This document shows positions 42,659-55,693 of a DNA stretch of 64,000 nt, piece by piece; the first letter of the stretch is position 1, and the number at the start of each line of letters is the position of its first letter. The notes below the pieces were generated by a model. That model saw only the letters and a program-made list of their open reading frames with translations. It did not search any database and was not told where the DNA came from. The DNA is from Ganoderma boninense. Lineage: Eukaryota > Basidiomycota > Agaricomycetes > Polyporales > Polyporaceae. The stretch covers positions 2,872,814 through 2,936,813 of the forward strand of contig CM035315.1 of the NCBI GenBank assembly GCA_002900995.3. Direction: 5' to 3'. The translations under genes were made by a program, and so were the position numbers.

Positions 42659-43208
42659 AACTCCTCTAACCAGGGCTCGTCTATAGCTTGGACCTCTTCT
42701 TCCTGTGTCAGCAGTTCCTTGGGGTGGTATGCAGCTGGGCACCGTGTGAAGTTGACTTGTCCATTTTTCCAATCGATTTCAGGGTTGTGTTCCCTCAAGA
42801 AGGTCATCCCAATAATGAGGTCTCGATTCCCAATGTCAGTAACCAAAAATGACTGCCAACTGGTGTGTTTTCCAATGGTGACCATGCATCATGTGTAGTG
42901 GGTGATGAGGCCCTTCTTGTTCTCTGTTGCATCAGTGTTGAACACTCGTATGTCCCTAGAAAGCCGCCACAATTCTAAACCATGTTCCTGAACAAACTGA
43001 TAGTGTGCAAAACTAGAGTAGGCTCCACAGTCTACTAGGGCTTCTGTCTGGATTTCACATTTGCCTTGCTTGAAGGTGAGTCCTAGATCTAATGATTGCT
43101 TTTGCCTGCGAGATGAGGCAAGGTATATATAATGTGATCTAGGTACAAAAGACTCCTCTAAGTGGCTTACGCTACTACATATAGACCGGATGTTACGACC
43201 AGACTTCG

Positions 43209-43502
43209 TTACATCCGCTGGAGAAAATCCTGCTCGTCAGCCTCGACGATCCATGCAGTAGTCTCCTGCTCTAAGGCCTTGCTCTTCTTCTCAAACTCCT
43301 TGAGCGCATTGATGACAAACTCCATTCGGTCTTGATCTTGACTGTCTTCACCCATAGTGCATACCCGAGTGCCTTTTGCCTTTGTCGTGTCTGGGAGCTT
43401 GTAGTACCCTTTGTATACCGGGTTTCGACACTTGACACCAGTCTTGAAGGGATGCCGACCACAGCGGAAACAGAGCTTCTTGGCAAGCCATTCCTCCTGC
43501 TC
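43209..43502 (-). pseudogene. 3' part of Gypsy A gag (zinc-knuckle region)
   Basis: This piece of gag continues the frame from 48835-50800 after removal of chromovirus B. It holds a cysteine-rich CFRCGRHPFKTGVKC motif, a knuckle-like nucleic-acid-binding element, and an acidic C-terminus ending at a TAA at 43209-43211. Confidence 0.8.
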
Positions 43503-43507
43503 CTTGG

Positions 43508-43977
43508 TGTTACGAACACCCCGTTTAGCGCCTACCTTAGCACCTAGGTTTCCTTTCTCGATTAGTTTACGTCCAATGTCGTCCTTGTTGTCCTCCATAG
43601 CCTTGTAAACCCTCCGCATTGTTTCCAAGTACAATAGCTCCTGTCTCCCCATTGTTCCCCTGTTGTTTCCCGTCGCTATTGTTCCCTACACCATTGTTCT
43701 CCCTTTCCGTTCCCGCGACCGTAGTTACCATTGTACTCTGTTCCCATGGACCTGCACATGTATATAAGGACTGTAGCCTGCTACCTGGGGACCCTAGTTT
43801 CGACCTCTTGTCCCCAGGTGAGCCCCACTGTATTTCCCTTGTAGATACTTCACTCAATACACTCTTGTCCCCAGCCTGACTGTTGAGCCCTGCTCCGCTC
43901 TCGCTGCACAAGCGCTCGTCAACACCCTTGCTCATCTCGTAAGCCTCCCTGATCTTACTCGACAGCCAGTCATAACA
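43508..43977 (+). repeat. 5' LTR of chromovirus B, with TATA box and predicted RNA start
   Basis: A 470-bp LTR, TGTTACGAACACC...CATAACA. TATATAAGG at 43761-43769 is followed about 30 nt later by the AGTTTCGACCT (43796-43806) expected at the transcript 5' end. About a dozen differences, nearly all transitions, separate it from the 3' LTR. Confidence 0.95.
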
Positions 43978-43990
43978 TTAGGTCGAAACT
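43978..43990 (+). promoter_or_regulatory. Self-priming-type primer-binding site of chromovirus B
   Basis: AGGTCGAAACT (43980-43990), two bases after the 5' LTR, is the exact reverse complement of AGTTTCGACCT in the LTR. No match to a tRNA 3' end (TGG...) is seen. In Tf1 and related elements the RNA 5' end folds back to this position as the primer. Confidence 0.75.
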
Positions 43991-44404
43991 TCTACACGAG
44001 CACTGGTGTACTCTACCCACATTCCTTTTTCTCTTGTACGGTACGCACTTAGATCCTCTGTGTTGGCCTAGCGTAGTACGCACTCTAGTCACACCATCGG
44101 ACGTGGTCTCGGCACAACCTGAGGCTTGCCACTCTCAGTGGTACAGTACGCGGAAAGCTCCTAACACGAGACCCCGGTACTGACAGAAGTGGTCCGCCTC
44201 ACGGCGTGGGAGGCTAGAGAAAGGCGGTGAAACAAAGCCAAGGCAGAACACCCTTGGGCCCATGTCCCTTGGGCTAAGACACAGCAATAGGCCGAGGAGG
44301 CTGAGCAAACAGTGTTGGATCGTGCACCCGCCGTGTTCATTCCTGGGATAGGAAGCGAGGCATCCCACAACACCCACCTAGAAACCCTCGATCACCCCAC
44401 TGCT

Positions 44405-44554
44405 ATGTCCGCCATCCCGCCACCTCAGGCTGAACAACTCCAAACACTGAAAGCGCAGATTGAAGCGCTGCAAGTGCAGTTGTTGCAGGTAGAGATCAAG
44501 CGGCTTGGTGAAAGGCTCGCCGCAGCCACACTAGCCAAGGAGGAGGGTTTCTGA
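44405..44554 (+). pseudogene. Residual gag of chromovirus B (C-terminal 49 codons)
   Basis: An ATG at 44405 opens a short coiled-coil-like frame (QTLKAQIEALQVQLLQVEIKRL) ending KEEGF at a TGA (44552-44554). It corresponds to the C-terminal tail of gag in element C (...AALQAQVKAMEEK... to KKEGF, stop). The capsid-like domain and zinc knuckle present in element C are absent. An upstream in-frame start at 44312 is also possible. Confidence 0.7.
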
Positions 44555-44590
44555 TTCGAGCCACACTGGACGCTGCGCGTGCTGGCTCGA
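44545..44590 (+). promoter_or_regulatory. Predicted -1 ribosomal frameshift signal (gag-pol)
   Basis: The heptamer G GGT TTC (44545-44551) matches the X XXY YYZ rule in the gag frame and is followed at once by the gag TGA. Four bases later TCGAGCCA (44556-44563) can pair with TGGCTCGA (44583-44590), an 8-bp stem with a 19-nt loop. Pol is open in the -1 frame from here. The same arrangement with compensatory changes occurs in element C. Confidence 0.8.
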
Positions 44591-47500
44591 GCAGTAACAG
44601 TCGATTTGCAGTACTGCGTTTGTCCTTCATATACGAAGTCAACCATGATGGACAACACTTTCATATCCCAGTACGACTTATCGGCAAGCAGCGGCACAAG
44701 GACATTGTTGCCATGGTAGATAGTGGAGCTACTACCAAGTTTTTGAGTAGACAATTCGTAGAACGGAATCGGGTCACCATGAGGAGGTTGGCCAAACCCA
44801 TCCCGCTGTATAACATAGATGGGACAGAGAACCGTGATGGAACGATCACAGAGGTAGCCGTGTTGGACATGGCAATTGGAGACCACCGAGAGAAGGTGGT
44901 GTTTGTAGTCACAGACATCGGAGAGGAGGATGCTATCATTGGACTAGACTGGCTGCGCGAGCACAACCCGGAGATAGACTGGGAACGTGGCTCGCTATGC
45001 CTCTCGAGGTGTCCAGAGACGTGTTCGACTCACCAGAAGGCATCTGAACCTGTTGAGACCAAAGCGCATGATACGGAGGTACGGCTTACAGCGCGCAGCG
45101 GTCCTCGACGGGTAAGGAAGGCTAAGACGGTGGGAAGGATATGTACGGCTGTGATGGTCGAGGAGGAGGAAGAGGAGGAGGTCAGGCCTCCACCACCAGG
45201 TTTTCTACCGGAATGGGATGGTACCGAGGAATCTTTTCTCAAGGCACTCGCTACTGGATGGACCCTTCGCAATGCCCCCAAACTCTTTGTTTCAGCAACG
45301 CACACATATTCACAGCAGCTTGCAGAACAGGAGTATCAGAAGAAGGAGATCCGCCCGGTTGAGGAGATCGTACCCAAGCAGTACCACGAATATCTCAAGG
45401 TCTTTTCGAAAGAGGCATCTGAACGCTTACCCAAGCATGGCCCCTACGATCACGCAATCGAACTCGTACCTGACGCAAAGATGTTCCATTCCAGAGTGTA
45501 CCCCCTGTCGCCCAGTGAACAAACCGAGCTAGACAAGTTCCTTATCGAGAACTTGGCCAAAGGTTACATCCAGGAGTCGAAGTCACCGATGTCCTCACCC
45601 TTCTTCTTTGTCAAAAAGAAGGATGGCAGTCTACGTCCAGTACAGGACTATCGACGGCTGAACAACATCACCATTAAGAACCGTTACCCACTGCCATTGG
45701 TTTCGGACCTGATGGATCGACTCAAAAGGGCCAAGTACTTTACCAAGCTCGATATACGCTGGGGGTACAACAACGTACGGATAAAGACTGGTGATGAATG
45801 GAAGGCAGCTTTTGTGACCAATCGAGGACTGTTCGAACCGAACGTCATGTTCTTTGGGCTAGCCAACTCGCCTAGCACGTTCTCTGCACTCATGAACGAC
45901 ATCTTTAAGGACCTCATCGTACTCGGCAAGATAACCATCTACCTCGACGACATCCTCATCTTTACCAATGACCTCGAGGAGCATCGGACACTTGTACGCG
46001 AAGTCCTGAAGCGTCTAGCAGAGCATGACCTGTTTTGCAAACCGGAGAAGTGCGAGTTTGAACAGCCCAAGGTTGAATACCTCGGTGTTCTCGTCTCAGA
46101 GAACCAGGTGGAGATGGACCCGGTGAAGGTCAAGGGTATCGCTGAATGGCCTGTTCCCCAGAACGCCTCAGACGTACGAAAGTTCCGTGGATTTGTGAAC
46201 TTCTATCGGCGGTTCATAAAGGACTTCAGTGCAGTCTGCAAACCCCTCGACCATCTCACTGGCAAGGCACCCTGGAAATGGGAAGCTGAGGAGCAGGCTG
46301 CCTTCGATGAGCTCAAACGACGCTTCGTAGAAAGCCCTGTCCTGCGGATGTATGATCCTAACCGTAGAACTCGCATTGAAGTCGACGCCTCTGGCTATGC
46401 AACTGGCAGAGTCCTGTCTCAGGAAGCAGAGGACGGCAAATGGCACCTTGTAGCCTTCCACTCTGAGTCAATGAGTGATGCTGAACGGAACTATGAGATC
46501 TATGACAAGGAGATGTTGGCAATCATCCGAGCCCTGCAGGCCTGGCGTCACTACCTTGAAGGGCTGCCTAGTGTGTTCGAAATCCAGTCAGATCACAAGA
46601 ACCTCGAATACTGGCGTACGGCACAAAACCTCACGCGCAGACAGGCACGATGGGCCCTGTACTTGTCACGGTTCGACTTTGTCATCTCACACAAACCAGG
46701 AACCTCAAATGGTAGAGCGGATGCCCTGTCAAGACGGCCAGACCACCTGCACGGTGACACTGAAGACAACCTCGGACGTACCATGCTGCAGCCAAGCCAC
46801 TTCCAGGTCATGGCAGCAAAACGAGGTCACTTGTCAGTAATTCCAGAGAAGGCATTGCTTCGACATATTCGGGAGTGTGGAGAACACGAACAGGAGGTGG
46901 CGGATGCACTTGGCAAGCTCAACAGCCTAGGACCCGCTCGTCTACAGAATGACTTGGTGGACTGGAACACGGAGCAAGGCCTACTTCTTTACCGTGGCCG
47001 AGTCTATGTCCCCAAGGATGATGCACTACGAGCAGAGATTGTACGCATTCACCATGACCTCCCACCCGCTGGACACCCTGGACAGGCAAAGACACTGGAG
47101 CTCATCTCACGCAACTACTGGTGGCCGAGCATGGGCAAGTTTGTCAAGCAGTATGTGGAGACCTGTGACACCTGTCGCCGTGGCAAGAACTCGCATGCAA
47201 AGCCGTATGGTCCCCTACAACCCAACGAGATCCCGGACGGCCCTGGCCAGGTAGTAGCCTGCGACTTCATCACCGGATTACCAGTGGTAGATGGATTCAA
47301 CACACTACAGCTCATTGTTGATCGACATGGGAAGATGATCCATCTTATCCCCTGTACCGAGGAGATCGATGCTGAAGGAGCTGCAGACAACTTCATCCGA
47401 GAGTACTTCCGTCTTCATGGTCTGCCGCACAAGATAGTCTCCGACAGAGGACCACAGTTCTCGAGCAAGCTCTTCCGTGCGATCCTCAAGGGACTTGGCA

Positions 47501-48333
47501 TTGAGAGTGCAATGTCTACTGCCTATCATCCCCAGACAGACGGCCAATCCGAACGGTGGAACCAGGAGATTGAGGCGTACTTGCGCATGTACTGCACACA
47601 ACACCGCGATGATTGGGTCAAATGGATGCCAATAGCAGAGTTTGCCTTCAATTCACACTCGCACTCATCGACAGGATATTCACCCTTCTACCTCATGTAT
47701 GGCTTCGAACCCCAGTTCCACATCCCGATGTTGTCTACGGCAGTGCCCACAGCAGATGAACGACGTGAGGAGCTACGACGTGCACGAGAGGATGCGACTG
47801 CAGCACTGGCTCTAACAGCCGAGCGGATGAAGGAGTACTACGACCGTTACGTACGAGACGCTCCAGAGTTCAAGGAGGGCCAGAAGGTGTGGCTCGACAC
47901 GAGGAACTTCCACGTCCCTGGAGTATCAAGGAAGTTGGTTGACCGCTATGCAGGCCCTTACCCAGTCAAACGCAAAGTAGGCAACCTGGCATACGAACTC
48001 AAACTCCCGAAGGACCTCACGATGCACCCGGTATTCCATGTATCCTTGCTACTCCCACACAAAGAGAGCGAACTCCCTGGTCGACACCCACCTGAACTGG
48101 CTCCCATTGACGTAGAAGGAGAGGAGGAGTACGAAGTTGAAGCAGTACTAGAGTCCCGCCGCTATGGGCGGTGGAAGAAGCTGCAGTACCTCGTCCACTG
48201 GAAGGGATGGGGCCCCGAGCAAGACAGCTGGGAAGACGCAGCAGACCTGAGCAACGCACCGCTGGTAGTAAAGAAATTCCATTCGACACACCCAGAGGCC
48301 CCCGGTCCCCTCAACAAGAAGACTCGGTCGTGA
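44548..48333 (+). CDS. Pol polyprotein of chromovirus B (PR-RT-RH-IN-chromodomain)
   Basis: An intact frame of about 1260 codons. It is taken from the slippery site because the -1 frame is open from there and no convincing AUG precedes the protease. Domains in order, with approximate residues: aspartic protease with VDSGATT (58), reverse transcriptase with YLDDILIF (465), RNase H with EVDASGYATG and YEIYDKEMLAIIRAL, integrase zinc-binding HH-CC (835-870), integrase core with CDFITGLP (906), SDRGPQFSSKLF and YHPQTDGQSERWNQ, a GPY/F-like module DRYAGPYPVKRKVGNLAYEL, and a C-terminal chromodomain YEVEAVLESRR...YLVHWKGWGPEQDSWE (1194-1250). The chromodomain would direct integration to marked chromatin. 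No internal stop or frameshift is present. Confidence 0.96.
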   Translation, partial: FLIRATLDAARAGSSSNSRFAVLRLSFIYEVNHDGQHFHIPVRLIGKQRHKDIVAMVDSGATTKFLSRQFVERNRVTMRRLAKPIPLYNIDGTENRDGTITEVAVLDMAIGDHREKVVFVVTDIGEEDAIIGLDWLREHNPEIDWERGSLCLSRCPETCSTHQKASEPVETKAHDTEVRLTARSGPRRVRKAKTVGRICTAVMVEEEEEEEVRPPPPGFLPEWDGTEESFLKALATGWTLRNAPKLFVSATHTYSQQLAEQEYQKKEIRPVEEIVPKQYHEYLKVFSKEASERLPKHGPYDHAIELVPDAKMFHSRVYPLSPSEQTELDKFLIENLAKGYIQESKSPMSSPFFFVKKKDGSLRPVQDYRRLNNITIKNRYPLPLVSDLMDRLKRAKYFTKLDIRWGYNNVRIKTGDEWKAAFVTNRGLFEPNVMFFGLANSPSTFSALMNDIFKDLIVLGKITIYLDDILIFTNDLEEHRTLVREVLKRLAEHDLFCKPEKCEFEQPKVEYLGVLVSENQVEMDPVKVKGIAEWPVPQNASDVRKFRGFVNFYRRFIKDFSAVCKPLDHLTGKAPWKWEAEEQAAFDELKRRFVESPVLRMYDPNRRTRIEVDASGYATGRVLSQEAEDGKWHLVAFHSESMSDAERNYEIYDKEMLAIIRALQAWRHYLEGLPSVFEIQSDHKNLEYWRTAQNLTRRQARWALYLSRFDFVISHKPGTSNGRADALSRRPDHLHGDTEDNLGRTMLQPSHFQVMAAKRGHLSVIPEKALLRHIRECGEHEQEVADALGKLNSLGPARLQNDLVDWNTEQGLLLYRGRVYVPKDDALRAEIVRIHHDLPPAGHPGQAKTLELISRNYWWPSMGKFVKQYVETCDTCRRGKNSHAKPYGPLQPNEIPDGPGQVVACDFITGLPVVDGFNTLQLIVDRHGKMIHLIPCTEEIDAEGAADNFIREYFRLHGLPHKIVSDRGPQFSSKLFRAILKGLGIESAMSTAYHPQTDGQSERWNQEIEAYLRMYCTQHRDDWVKWMPIAEFAFNSHSHSSTGYSPFYLMYGFEPQFHIPMLSTAVPTADERREELRRAREDATAALALTAERMKEYYDRYVRDAPEFKEGQKVWLDTRNFHVPGVSRKLVDRYAGPYPVKRKVGNLAYELKLPKDLTMHPVFHVSLLLPHKESELPGRHPPELAPIDVEGEEEYEVEAVLESRRYGRWKKLQYLVHWKGWGPEQDSWEDAADLSNAPLVVKKFHSTHPEAPGPLNKKTRS

Positions 48334-48359: not shown

Positions 48360-48829
48360 TGTTACGAACACCCCGTTTAGCACCTACCTTAGCGCCCAGG
48401 TTTCCTTTCTCGATTAGTTTACGTCCAATGTCGTCCTCGTTGTCCTCCATAGCATTGTAAACCCTCTGCATTGTTTCCAAGTACAATAGCTCCTGTCTCC
48501 CCATTGTTCCTCTGTTGTTTCCCGTCGCTATTGTTCCCTACACCATTGTTCTCCCTTTCCGTTCCCGCGACCGTAGTTACCATTGTACTCCGTTCCCATG
48601 GACCTGCACATGTATATAAGGACTGTAGCCTGCTACCTGGGGACCCTAGTTTCGACCTCTTGTCCCCAGGTGAGCCCCACTGTATTTCTCTTGTAGATAC
48701 TTCACTCAATACACTCTTGTCCCCAGCCTGACTGTTGAGCCCTGCTCCGCTCTCGCTGCACAAGCGCTCGTCAACACCCTTGCTCGTCTCGTAAGCCTCC
48801 CTGATCTTACTCGACAGCCAGTTGTAACA
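48360..48829 (+). repeat. 3' LTR of chromovirus B
   Basis: 470 bp, same length as the 5' LTR, preceded by the purine tract and followed by the CTTGG duplication. Confidence 0.95.
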
Positions 48830-48834
48830 CTTGG

Positions 48835-55500: not shown

Positions 55501-55683
55501 TGGTAGTAGCTCCACTATCTACCATTGCTACTATGTCCTTATGTCGCTGCTTGCTGATCAACCGTACCGGTATATGAAAGTGCTGGCCACTATGATTTAC
55601 TTCATATACAAACACAGAACTCAGTACAGAAAATCGACTATTACTACAAGAGCCGGCATGCACAGCGTCCAGTGCAGCTCTAA
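52540..55683 (-). pseudogene. pol of chromovirus C, truncated and stop-bearing
   Basis: Protease (VDSGATTKF, about 55520), RT with YLDDILIF (about 54300), RNase H (IEVDASRYATG), integrase zinc-binding region (about 53080-53200) and core (ISDWGPQFSSKLF and AYHPQTDGQSK) follow the order of B. Stops interrupt it at about 53205, 53465, 53596, 54588 and elsewhere; for instance RRQARWAL of B reads RRQA-stop-WAL. It ends shortly after SSTGYSLFYFMYG, where the lone LTR begins, so the chromodomain is missing. Confidence 0.88.
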
Positions 55684-55693
55684 TCAGAAACCC
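55648..55693 (-). promoter_or_regulatory. Predicted -1 frameshift signal of chromovirus C
   Basis: On the minus strand GGGTTTC (55687-55693) precedes the gag TGA, and AGAGCTG pairs with CGGCTCT (stem arms within 55675-55682 and 55648-55655) around a 19-nt loop. Relative to B, one C-G pair has become A-T, one A-T has become G-C, one C-G has become U-G, and the outermost pair is lost. Confidence 0.75.

What the first reader, a model, noticed from the sequence alone, without database searches (positions are those of the whole stretch)
44545..44590. -1 frameshift signal with covarying stem at the chromovirus gag-pol junction
Element B has G GGT TTC directly before the gag TGA, pol open in the -1 frame, and 4 nt later an 8-bp stem (TCGAGCCA/TGGCTCGA, 19-nt loop). 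Element C (55648-55693) has the same heptamer, spacing and loop length. In its stem a C-G pair is replaced by A-T, an A-T by G-C and a C-G by U-G; the outermost pair is lost. Most of these changes are synonymous in pol, so pairing, not protein, seems to be conserved. X XXY YYZ plus a hairpin is the established form of -1 programmed frameshifting; its use here is inference from sequence.
Basis: partly seen in the sequence, partly recalled or inferred. Interest (0 to 1): 0.85.

Follow-up and report, generated by a model that had tools for sequence, protein, structure and literature searches.

The report
Frameshift cassette in a Gag-less retrotransposon
The spot looks like a real -1 ribosomal frameshift signal of the kind many fungal retrotransposons use, but this element has lost its particle-forming Gag gene, still keeps the signal and an intact Pol, and probably borrows Gag from a related family.

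Summary
The sequence is as described: G GGT TTC just before TGA, pol open in the -1 frame, and an 8-bp stem 4 nt downstream. A -1 programmed frameshift is well supported. Heptamer plus TGA is intact in 33 of 33 examined copies with a long open pol. Three other gypsy families here (A, D, E) have their own X XXY YYZ-like site and hairpin at a -1 gag/pol junction (combined stem p 4e-6 against shuffles, 1e-4 to 4e-4 against other positions). Of 24 Gag homologues read, 19 end in E-[G/N/D]-F.

The claimed covariation mostly fails: the A-T (window B) and U-G (window C) variants are CpG transitions of decaying copies. One fixed compensatory pair remains (about 8% by chance).

Its family (22 copies examined) has a 49-codon ORF1 before the shift site, a nearly AUG-free leader, a constrained Pol (dN/dS 0.15) and some identical LTR pairs. 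Its U5-leader is about 96% identical to Gag-encoding family C, although the upstream LTR and pol diverged far more. Best reading: a Tf1/sushi-type element borrowing C-type Gag and making ORF1-Pol by -1 frameshifting. Translation and packaging were not measured.

The parts
43508..43977 (+). 5' LTR of element B (470 bp); with the 3' LTR it is flanked by a CTTGG target-site duplication (43503-43507 and 48830-48834)
   Evidence: 97.4% identical to the 3' LTR over 470 bp; 12 mismatches, 6 of them CpG transitions
43796..43806 (+). AGTTTCGACCT, presumed 5' end of R / self-primer
   Evidence: reverse complement of the presumed primer-binding site just after the LTR
43980..43990 (+). AGGTCGAAACT, presumed self-priming primer-binding site
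   Evidence: offset 2 in the leader of L013; read directly
43978..44358 (+). leader shared with Gag-encoding family C (about 96% identical); the similarity begins in U5, near LTR nt 359
44405..44554 (+). ORF1, 49 codons plus TGA, the frame upstream of pol (no Gag); ends ..LAKEEGF
   Evidence: open from ATG to heptamer in 18 of 22 family copies; only AUG between the R motif and the heptamer in 10 of 12 copies in which the motif was found, the window copy being one of the two exceptions; no Pfam match
44545..44551 (+). slippery heptamer G GGT TTC
   Evidence: exact in 20 of 22 B and 101 of 110 C junctions; 33 of 33 long-open pol copies
44556..44563 (+). 5' arm of the 8-bp stem
44583..44590 (+). 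3' arm of the 8-bp stem
44545..48333 (+). pol in the -1 frame: protease, RT, RNase H, integrase, chromodomain
   Evidence: 1262 open codons; Pfam PF13975, PF00078, PF17917, PF00665, PF24626, PF00385, searched in five pieces
48360..48829 (+). 3' LTR of element B
55648..55693 (-). element C frameshift signal: heptamer 55693-55687, TGA, stem arms 55682-55675 and 55655-55648
43187..43230 (-). element A (another gypsy family): heptamer GGATTTT 43230-43224, 6-nt spacer, stem CGGATGTAACG/CGTAACATCCG with one mismatch, 9-nt loop; pol in the -1 frame (open 113 codons in this copy)

Best explanation
The junction is a -1 programmed ribosomal frameshift site. A scanning ribosome starts at the first AUG after a long leader that is nearly free of AUGs. 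In C-type elements this begins the 278-aa Gag; in B-type elements it begins a 49-codon ORF1. The ribosome reads to G GGT TTC, pauses at the hairpin 4-5 nt downstream, slips one base back on some passages and continues into Pol; otherwise it stops at the adjacent TGA. Element B belongs to a young Gag-less family of Tf1/sushi-type chromoviruses. It keeps the site because its Pol has no AUG of its own before the protease motif, and its RNA is most likely packaged by Gag made by C-type elements through the shared U5-leader. Shown from sequence: the signal and its conservation, the absence of Gag, the Pol constraint, recent insertions and the shared leader. Inferred: that slippage occurs and how often, and that C Gag is the helper.
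For: Heptamer and TGA intact in 33 of 33 examined long-open pol copies (962 codons or more, my cut-off); stem pairs 2-8 unbroken, G-U allowed, in 32 of 33. Families A, D and E carry GGATTTT, GGGAAAT and GGATTTT with a hairpin 4-6 nt downstream and pol in the -1 frame. Combined stem probability over B, A, D, E: 4e-6 against shuffles (Watson-Crick), 1e-5 with G-U, and 1e-4 or 4e-4 against positions in the same sequences. Leaders: in 7 of 8 C copies the Gag AUG is the first AUG of the stretch read; in one C copy 1167 nt from the R motif to that AUG hold none where 12 are expected from base composition; in B, ORF1's AUG is the only one in 10 of 12 copies. Gag homologues end E-[GND]-F in 19 of 24 read. 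In the 15 of 22 B copies with a full-length 5' LTR match, 561-574 nt separate LTR end and heptamer, and no listed Retrotrans_gag hit lies within 3 kb upstream on the same strand of any of the 22 (read by eye; the list is a lower bound). B Pol pairwise dN/dS is 0.15, or 0.10 without CpG transitions, over 8 copies. Three of 9 LTR pairs sought are identical. U5-leader is about 96% identical between B and C, against LTRs about 78% and pS 0.52 in pol. Published: Tf1/sushi elements outside fission yeasts predominantly use -1 frameshifting (PMC10085805, passages).
Against: No translation or particle data. The stem is a plain hairpin with a short spacer, and its calculated stability is not exceptional beyond 40 nt. 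With G-U pairs allowed, the stems of C (428 of 2000 shuffles) and A (144 of 2000) are weak on their own; with Watson-Crick pairs only, that of D copy L151 is (369 of 2000). The AUG-free B leader is only mildly unusual against dinucleotide shuffles (68 of 2000 have none). Leader similarity could come from recent recombination rather than shared packaging. The dN/dS copies were chosen for open frames. Without Gag it is unclear how ORF1-Pol enters particles. In family E 6 of 18 copies, and in family D 2 of 4, have lost the exact heptamer. Five of the 24 Gag homologues read do not end in E-[GND]-F.
Confidence: 0.72

Rival explanations
1. Pol is not made by frameshifting in B. Ribosomes leak past ORF1 or reinitiate after its TGA and start at the first in-frame AUG of pol (44713).
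For: In the window copy only two other AUGs (44645, 44648) lie between ORF1's AUG and 44713. In the published BARE2 case Pol without Gag was suggested to come from scanning or internal entry (PMC3735527, passages).
Against: That start drops 56 codons and falls directly before the protease VDSGA motif, cutting into the protease domain. It leaves the conserved heptamer and stem unexplained.
Confidence: 0.12
2. B is a passive deletion derivative mobilised entirely by C's Gag and Pol; its own pol and shift site are relics.
For: No Gag found in the family; shared U5-leader with C.
Against: Pol dN/dS 0.15 among 8 B copies; ORF1 open in 18 of 22 with dN/dS 0.32; the 7 long-open B copies keep heptamer and full stem.
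Confidence: 0.2
3. The stem is not a functional RNA element but a by-product of shared descent and protein constraint in the first pol codons.
For: Within-family variation looks like CpG decay, with 5 two-sided against 43 one-sided changed cells. Reduced synonymous divergence in the first 20 codons (pS 0.24) is matched by other windows, as low as 0.19.
Against: Families A, D and E have different stem sequences at the same place.
Confidence: 0.12

Closest known systems
Tf1/sushi-group chromoviruses, which outside fission yeasts predominantly use -1 frameshifting (PMC10085805, passages seen)
   Same: Chromodomain integrase, self-priming sequence, CCHC Gag (in C), pol in the -1 frame after a slippery site
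   Different: B lacks Gag and places the shift site after a 49-codon ORF1
BARE2, the Gag-deficient parasite of BARE1 in barley (PMC3735527, passages seen)
   Same: Gag-less but Pol-bearing family coexisting with a Gag-making relative; conserved leader (packaging) region
   Different: BARE is Copia with a single ORF and no frameshift; B is a Ty3/gypsy chromovirus that retains a frameshift cassette before Pol. Packaging of B RNA is not shown
PEG10, a domesticated Ty3/gypsy-derived gene with a -1 frameshift (PMC5009743, passages seen)
   Same: Ty3/gypsy-derived -1 frameshift at a gag/pol junction
   Different: PEG10 uses a pseudoknot; here only a simple hairpin is seen, and a short loop-to-3' pairing I looked at by eye (ACTG/CAGT) is sterically implausible

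Membership tests
canonical -1 programmed frameshift signal | X XXY YYZ heptamer in the zero frame near the upstream stop | tested here: met
   G GGT TTC directly before TGA; 121 of 132 junctions exact, 33 of 33 long-open copies
canonical -1 programmed frameshift signal | downstream frame open in -1 and encoding the continuation | tested here: met
   1262 codons with protease to chromodomain
canonical -1 programmed frameshift signal | stimulatory RNA structure a few nt downstream | tested here: met
   8-bp stem in B, 7 bp in C; Watson-Crick shuffles 16/2000 and 10/2000; met as a predicted hairpin only, stability weaker in longer windows
canonical -1 programmed frameshift signal | compensatory changes that show pairing is selected | tested here: inconclusive
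   one fixed compensatory pair between families; within-family changes mostly CpG decay
canonical -1 programmed frameshift signal | measured -1 product | not testable with these tools
   needs a reporter or proteomics
Tf1/sushi group of chromoviruses | integrase with chromodomain | tested here: met
   PF00385 and PF24626 (SH3_Tf2-1) in B
Tf1/sushi group of chromoviruses | self-priming: primer-binding site complementary to the RNA 5' end | tested here: met
   11-nt AGGTCGAAACT after the LTR and AGTTTCGACCT in the LTR; the RNA start itself is inferred
Tf1/sushi group of chromoviruses | RT-integrase phylogeny within the group | not tested
   no tree built
Gag-deficient parasitic LTR retrotransposon (BARE2 type) | no family member encodes Gag | tested here: met
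   15 of 22 copies with a full-length 5' LTR match have 561-574 nt from LTR to heptamer; no listed PF03732 hit within 3 kb upstream, same strand, of any of the 22 (a lower-bound list, read by eye); copies not found are untested
Gag-deficient parasitic LTR retrotransposon (BARE2 type) | functional, constrained Pol and recent insertions | tested here: met
   dN/dS 0.15 over 8 open copies; of 9 LTR pairs sought 7 found, 3 identical
Gag-deficient parasitic LTR retrotransposon (BARE2 type) | RNA packaged into the helper's particles | not testable with these tools
   only the shared leader supports it

The most novel reading that the evidence does not exclude
B is a self-sustaining Gag-less chromovirus lineage that has turned the gag-pol frameshift into a minimal cassette. 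A 49-aa, coiled-coil-like ORF1 (ending in EGF like Gag's tail) tags a small amount of Pol, possibly tethering it to Gag particles made by C-type elements, while the shared U5-leader gets B RNA packaged. Frameshifting would then be kept to limit or tag Pol rather than to set a Gag to Gag-Pol ratio. The coiled-coil call is by eye; no BLASTP similarity to Gag was found.
Probability: 0.4. Interest if true: 0.75.

Novelty: new variant of a known kind. Interest (0 to 1): 0.58.

Why it matters
-1 frameshifting at gag/pol junctions is usually explained as setting the ratio of Gag to Gag-Pol. A family that has lost Gag yet keeps the whole cassette and an intact Pol separates the two: it lets one ask whether low or tagged Pol is itself selected. 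It also looks like a fungal Ty3/gypsy counterpart of the plant BARE1/BARE2 parasite pair, with the presumed packaging region visible as an island of high similarity.

Tried and rejected
Covariation as the main argument: rejected. After counting 132 junctions, only one pair differs in a compensatory way between families, and the rest is mostly CpG decay. Pseudoknot: a 4-bp loop-to-3' pairing (ACTG/CAGT) was noticed by eye and dropped as sterically implausible. Homology of B ORF1 to the Gag tail: BLASTP finds nothing meaningful, so only the shared final residues are stated. Relatives' DNA elsewhere: viral contigs gave none, so the cross-species test rests on proteins alone. Synonymous constraint at the junction: present but not unique. 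Direct repeats around element C: none of 100 bp or more found. Stop readthrough: excluded because pol is in another frame.

Rows dropped before counts: 13 duplicate loci before the 132 junctions. Of 150 rows, those starting beyond query residue 2 were not fetched, and 80 of the 83 regions listed were. For the 33 long-open copies (962 codons or more, no stop in the matched piece) I left out two rows with an internal TGA and two rows whose match did not reach the junction. Family A: window copy plus 20 of the 26 other places; family E: 18 of 19 places; family D: 4 of 4. L019 was left out of the dN/dS pairs because of an indel. Of 34 Gag homologues 24 were read, and 19 end in E-[GND]-F; the five that do not are P0003, P0018, P0026, P0029 and P0034. 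The 17-row alignment (query plus 16) was chosen after seeing the ends, so its 17 of 17 is not independent evidence. The family in L155 was left unresolved.

Full report
Observation. GGGTTTC occupies 44545-44551, TGA 44552-44554, and the stem arms 44556-44563 and 44583-44590 with a 19-nt loop. Pol is open in the -1 frame for 1262 codons to 48333 and carries protease, RT, RNase H, integrase, SH3_Tf2-1 and chromodomain. Element C repeats the layout on the minus strand. A Watson-Crick stem at least as long arises in 16 of 2000 shuffles for B copy L013 and 10 of 2000 for C copy L049; with G-U allowed the figures are 48 and 428 of 2000.

Copies. The window lies in a 55.6-Mb genome of 74 contigs. Gag homologues in Ganoderma sinense, G. 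leucocontextum and Dichomitus squalens suggest a polypore host. I examined 132 distinct junctions, 22 of type B and 110 of type C. None was chosen by its heptamer, though the 300-bp DNA queries span it; the rest came from the protease search. The heptamer is exact in 20 of 22 and 101 of 110. All 33 examined copies with pol open for 962 codons or more keep heptamer and TGA; the 11 with another heptamer are among the other 99. One of the 33 (L108) has a broken pair between positions 2 and 8; among all 132, 11 do; in C the outermost pair is not formed.

Covariation. The commonest B stem is TCGAGCCG/CGGCTCGA, and the commonest C stem TAGAGCCG/CGGCTCTT. The fixed differences are therefore one compensatory pair (C-G to A-T) and loss of the outermost pair. 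The A-T pair is seen in the window copy alone among the 22 B copies; the U-G of the window C copy recurs in a minority of copies. Of the arm changes, 18 of 18 in B and 33 of 55 in C are C>T or G>A at CpG; most of the rest in C are a T>C at the unpaired first position. Two-sided changes number 5 (two of them in L028 and L029, which share the same junction stem) against 32 one-sided G-U and 11 one-sided broken cells, not counting 20 cells at the unpaired first position and one gap. CpG decay of a stem whose CpG steps face each other can yield such pairs without selection. For the one fixed pair I estimate 2/8 x 1/3, about 0.08, by chance.

Stronger evidence for the shift. Three other gypsy families in this genome have pol in the -1 frame at the junction. 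A (window 43230-43187 minus; window copy plus 20 others) has GGATTTT, a 6-nt spacer and an 11-position stem with one mismatch; GGATTTT is intact in all 21, and both arms are unchanged in 11. D (4 copies) has GGGAAAT and an 8-bp stem, intact heptamer in 2 of 4. E (18 copies) has GGATTTT-TGAA and a perfect 8-bp stem, heptamer intact in 12 of 18, both arms unchanged in 15 of 18. Stem sequences differ between families while the placement is alike. Combined probability over B, A, D, E is 4e-6 (Watson-Crick) or 1e-5 (with G-U) against shuffles, and 1e-4 or 4e-4 against positions of the same sequences; singly, D copy L151 is not unusual with Watson-Crick pairs only (369 of 2000), nor A striking with G-U (144 of 2000). 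Another family in the same genome (L153, L154, L157) reads gag and pol in one frame. Of 24 Gag homologues read, 19 end in E-[G/N/D]-F, which fits G GGT TTY, A AAT TTY and G GAT TTY; the DNA of those homologues was not available. A review lists G_GGU_UUU among the most shift-prone heptamers (PMC5009743, passages), and Tf1/sushi elements outside fission yeasts are reported to use mainly -1 frameshifting (PMC10085805, passages). A full-text search for GGGUUUC with frameshift gave 5 papers, none on retrotransposons by title.

Element B has no Gag. In family C the frame before the shift contains a 278-aa Gag with a zinc knuckle and, in L042, a capsid match just under cut-off; homologues of like length exist. 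In family B only 561-574 nt separate the 5' LTR from the heptamer in the 15 of 22 copies whose 5' LTR matched at full length, and the frame from ORF1's AUG is 49 codons. It is open in 18 of 22 copies, with dN/dS 0.32. No Retrotrans_gag hit listed lies within 3 kb upstream on the same strand of any of the 22 (read by eye; the list is a lower bound). Pairwise Pol dN/dS among 8 B copies is 0.15, or 0.10 without CpG transitions. Of 9 LTR pairs sought, 7 were found and 3 of those are identical. So a Gag-less family has transposed recently with a constrained Pol.

Leader. From U5 (about LTR nt 359) through leader nt 381, one B and one C copy are about 96% identical, while the upstream LTR is 55-82% identical in 40-nt windows and synonymous sites in pol differ at 52%; leader matches to the other C loci with leader sequence are mostly 90-97%. 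The island ends near the start of C's long gag frame. It contains the self-priming sequence and the likely packaging region. In the C copy measured, 1167 nt from the R motif to Gag hold no AUG (12 expected from base composition). In 7 of 8 C copies the Gag AUG is the first in the stretch read; L042 has an earlier one, by my reading a CpG change. In B the ORF1 AUG is the only one in 10 of 12 copies with the R motif; the window copy and L019 have one more. Pol's first in-frame AUG (44713) lies directly before the protease active-site motif.

Mechanism. Ribosomes scan a long AUG-poor leader, translate ORF1 (Gag in C, 49 codons in B), slip at G GGT TTC under the influence of the hairpin, and make ORF1-Pol. 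B RNA and Pol then depend on Gag from C-type elements. The nearest parallel is BARE2, which cannot make Gag and is packaged into BARE1 particles (PMC3735527, passages); B differs in being a Ty3/gypsy element that keeps a frameshift. My searches for Gag-less elements with pol showed no fungal case in their listings; one paper says that Ty3 elements of Cryptococcus gattii lack gag domains (PMC5389150, passages), which may reflect poor profile sensitivity. Slippage, its efficiency and packaging remain unmeasured.

Noticed in passing
window 43187-43230 (minus): Element A, into whose gag B has inserted, has its own -1 frameshift signal: GGATTTT, 6-nt spacer, 11-position stem with one mismatch, 9-nt loop; heptamer intact in 21 of 21 copies seen.
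   Followed up: yes
L151:517-563 and L156 (minus): Two further families (D with GGGAAAT, E with GGATTTT) show the same layout; the family in L153, L154 and L157 reads gag and pol in one frame; L155 was not resolved.
   Followed up: partly
family C copies, e.g. L049:204-818: Upstream of the Gag AUG the same frame stays open for about 200 more codons, mostly without an AUG: 11 of 33 long C loci have 478 or more open codons before the stop. It may be coding through a non-AUG start or splicing, or simply lack AUG and stops.
   Followed up: no
family B pol: 501 of 794 pairwise differences among 8 B copies are CpG transitions, a RIP-like or methylation-decay signature.
   Followed up: partly
window 43796-43806 and 43980-43990: 11-nt complementarity between the LTR and the sequence just after it suggests Tf1-type self-priming.
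   Followed up: partly
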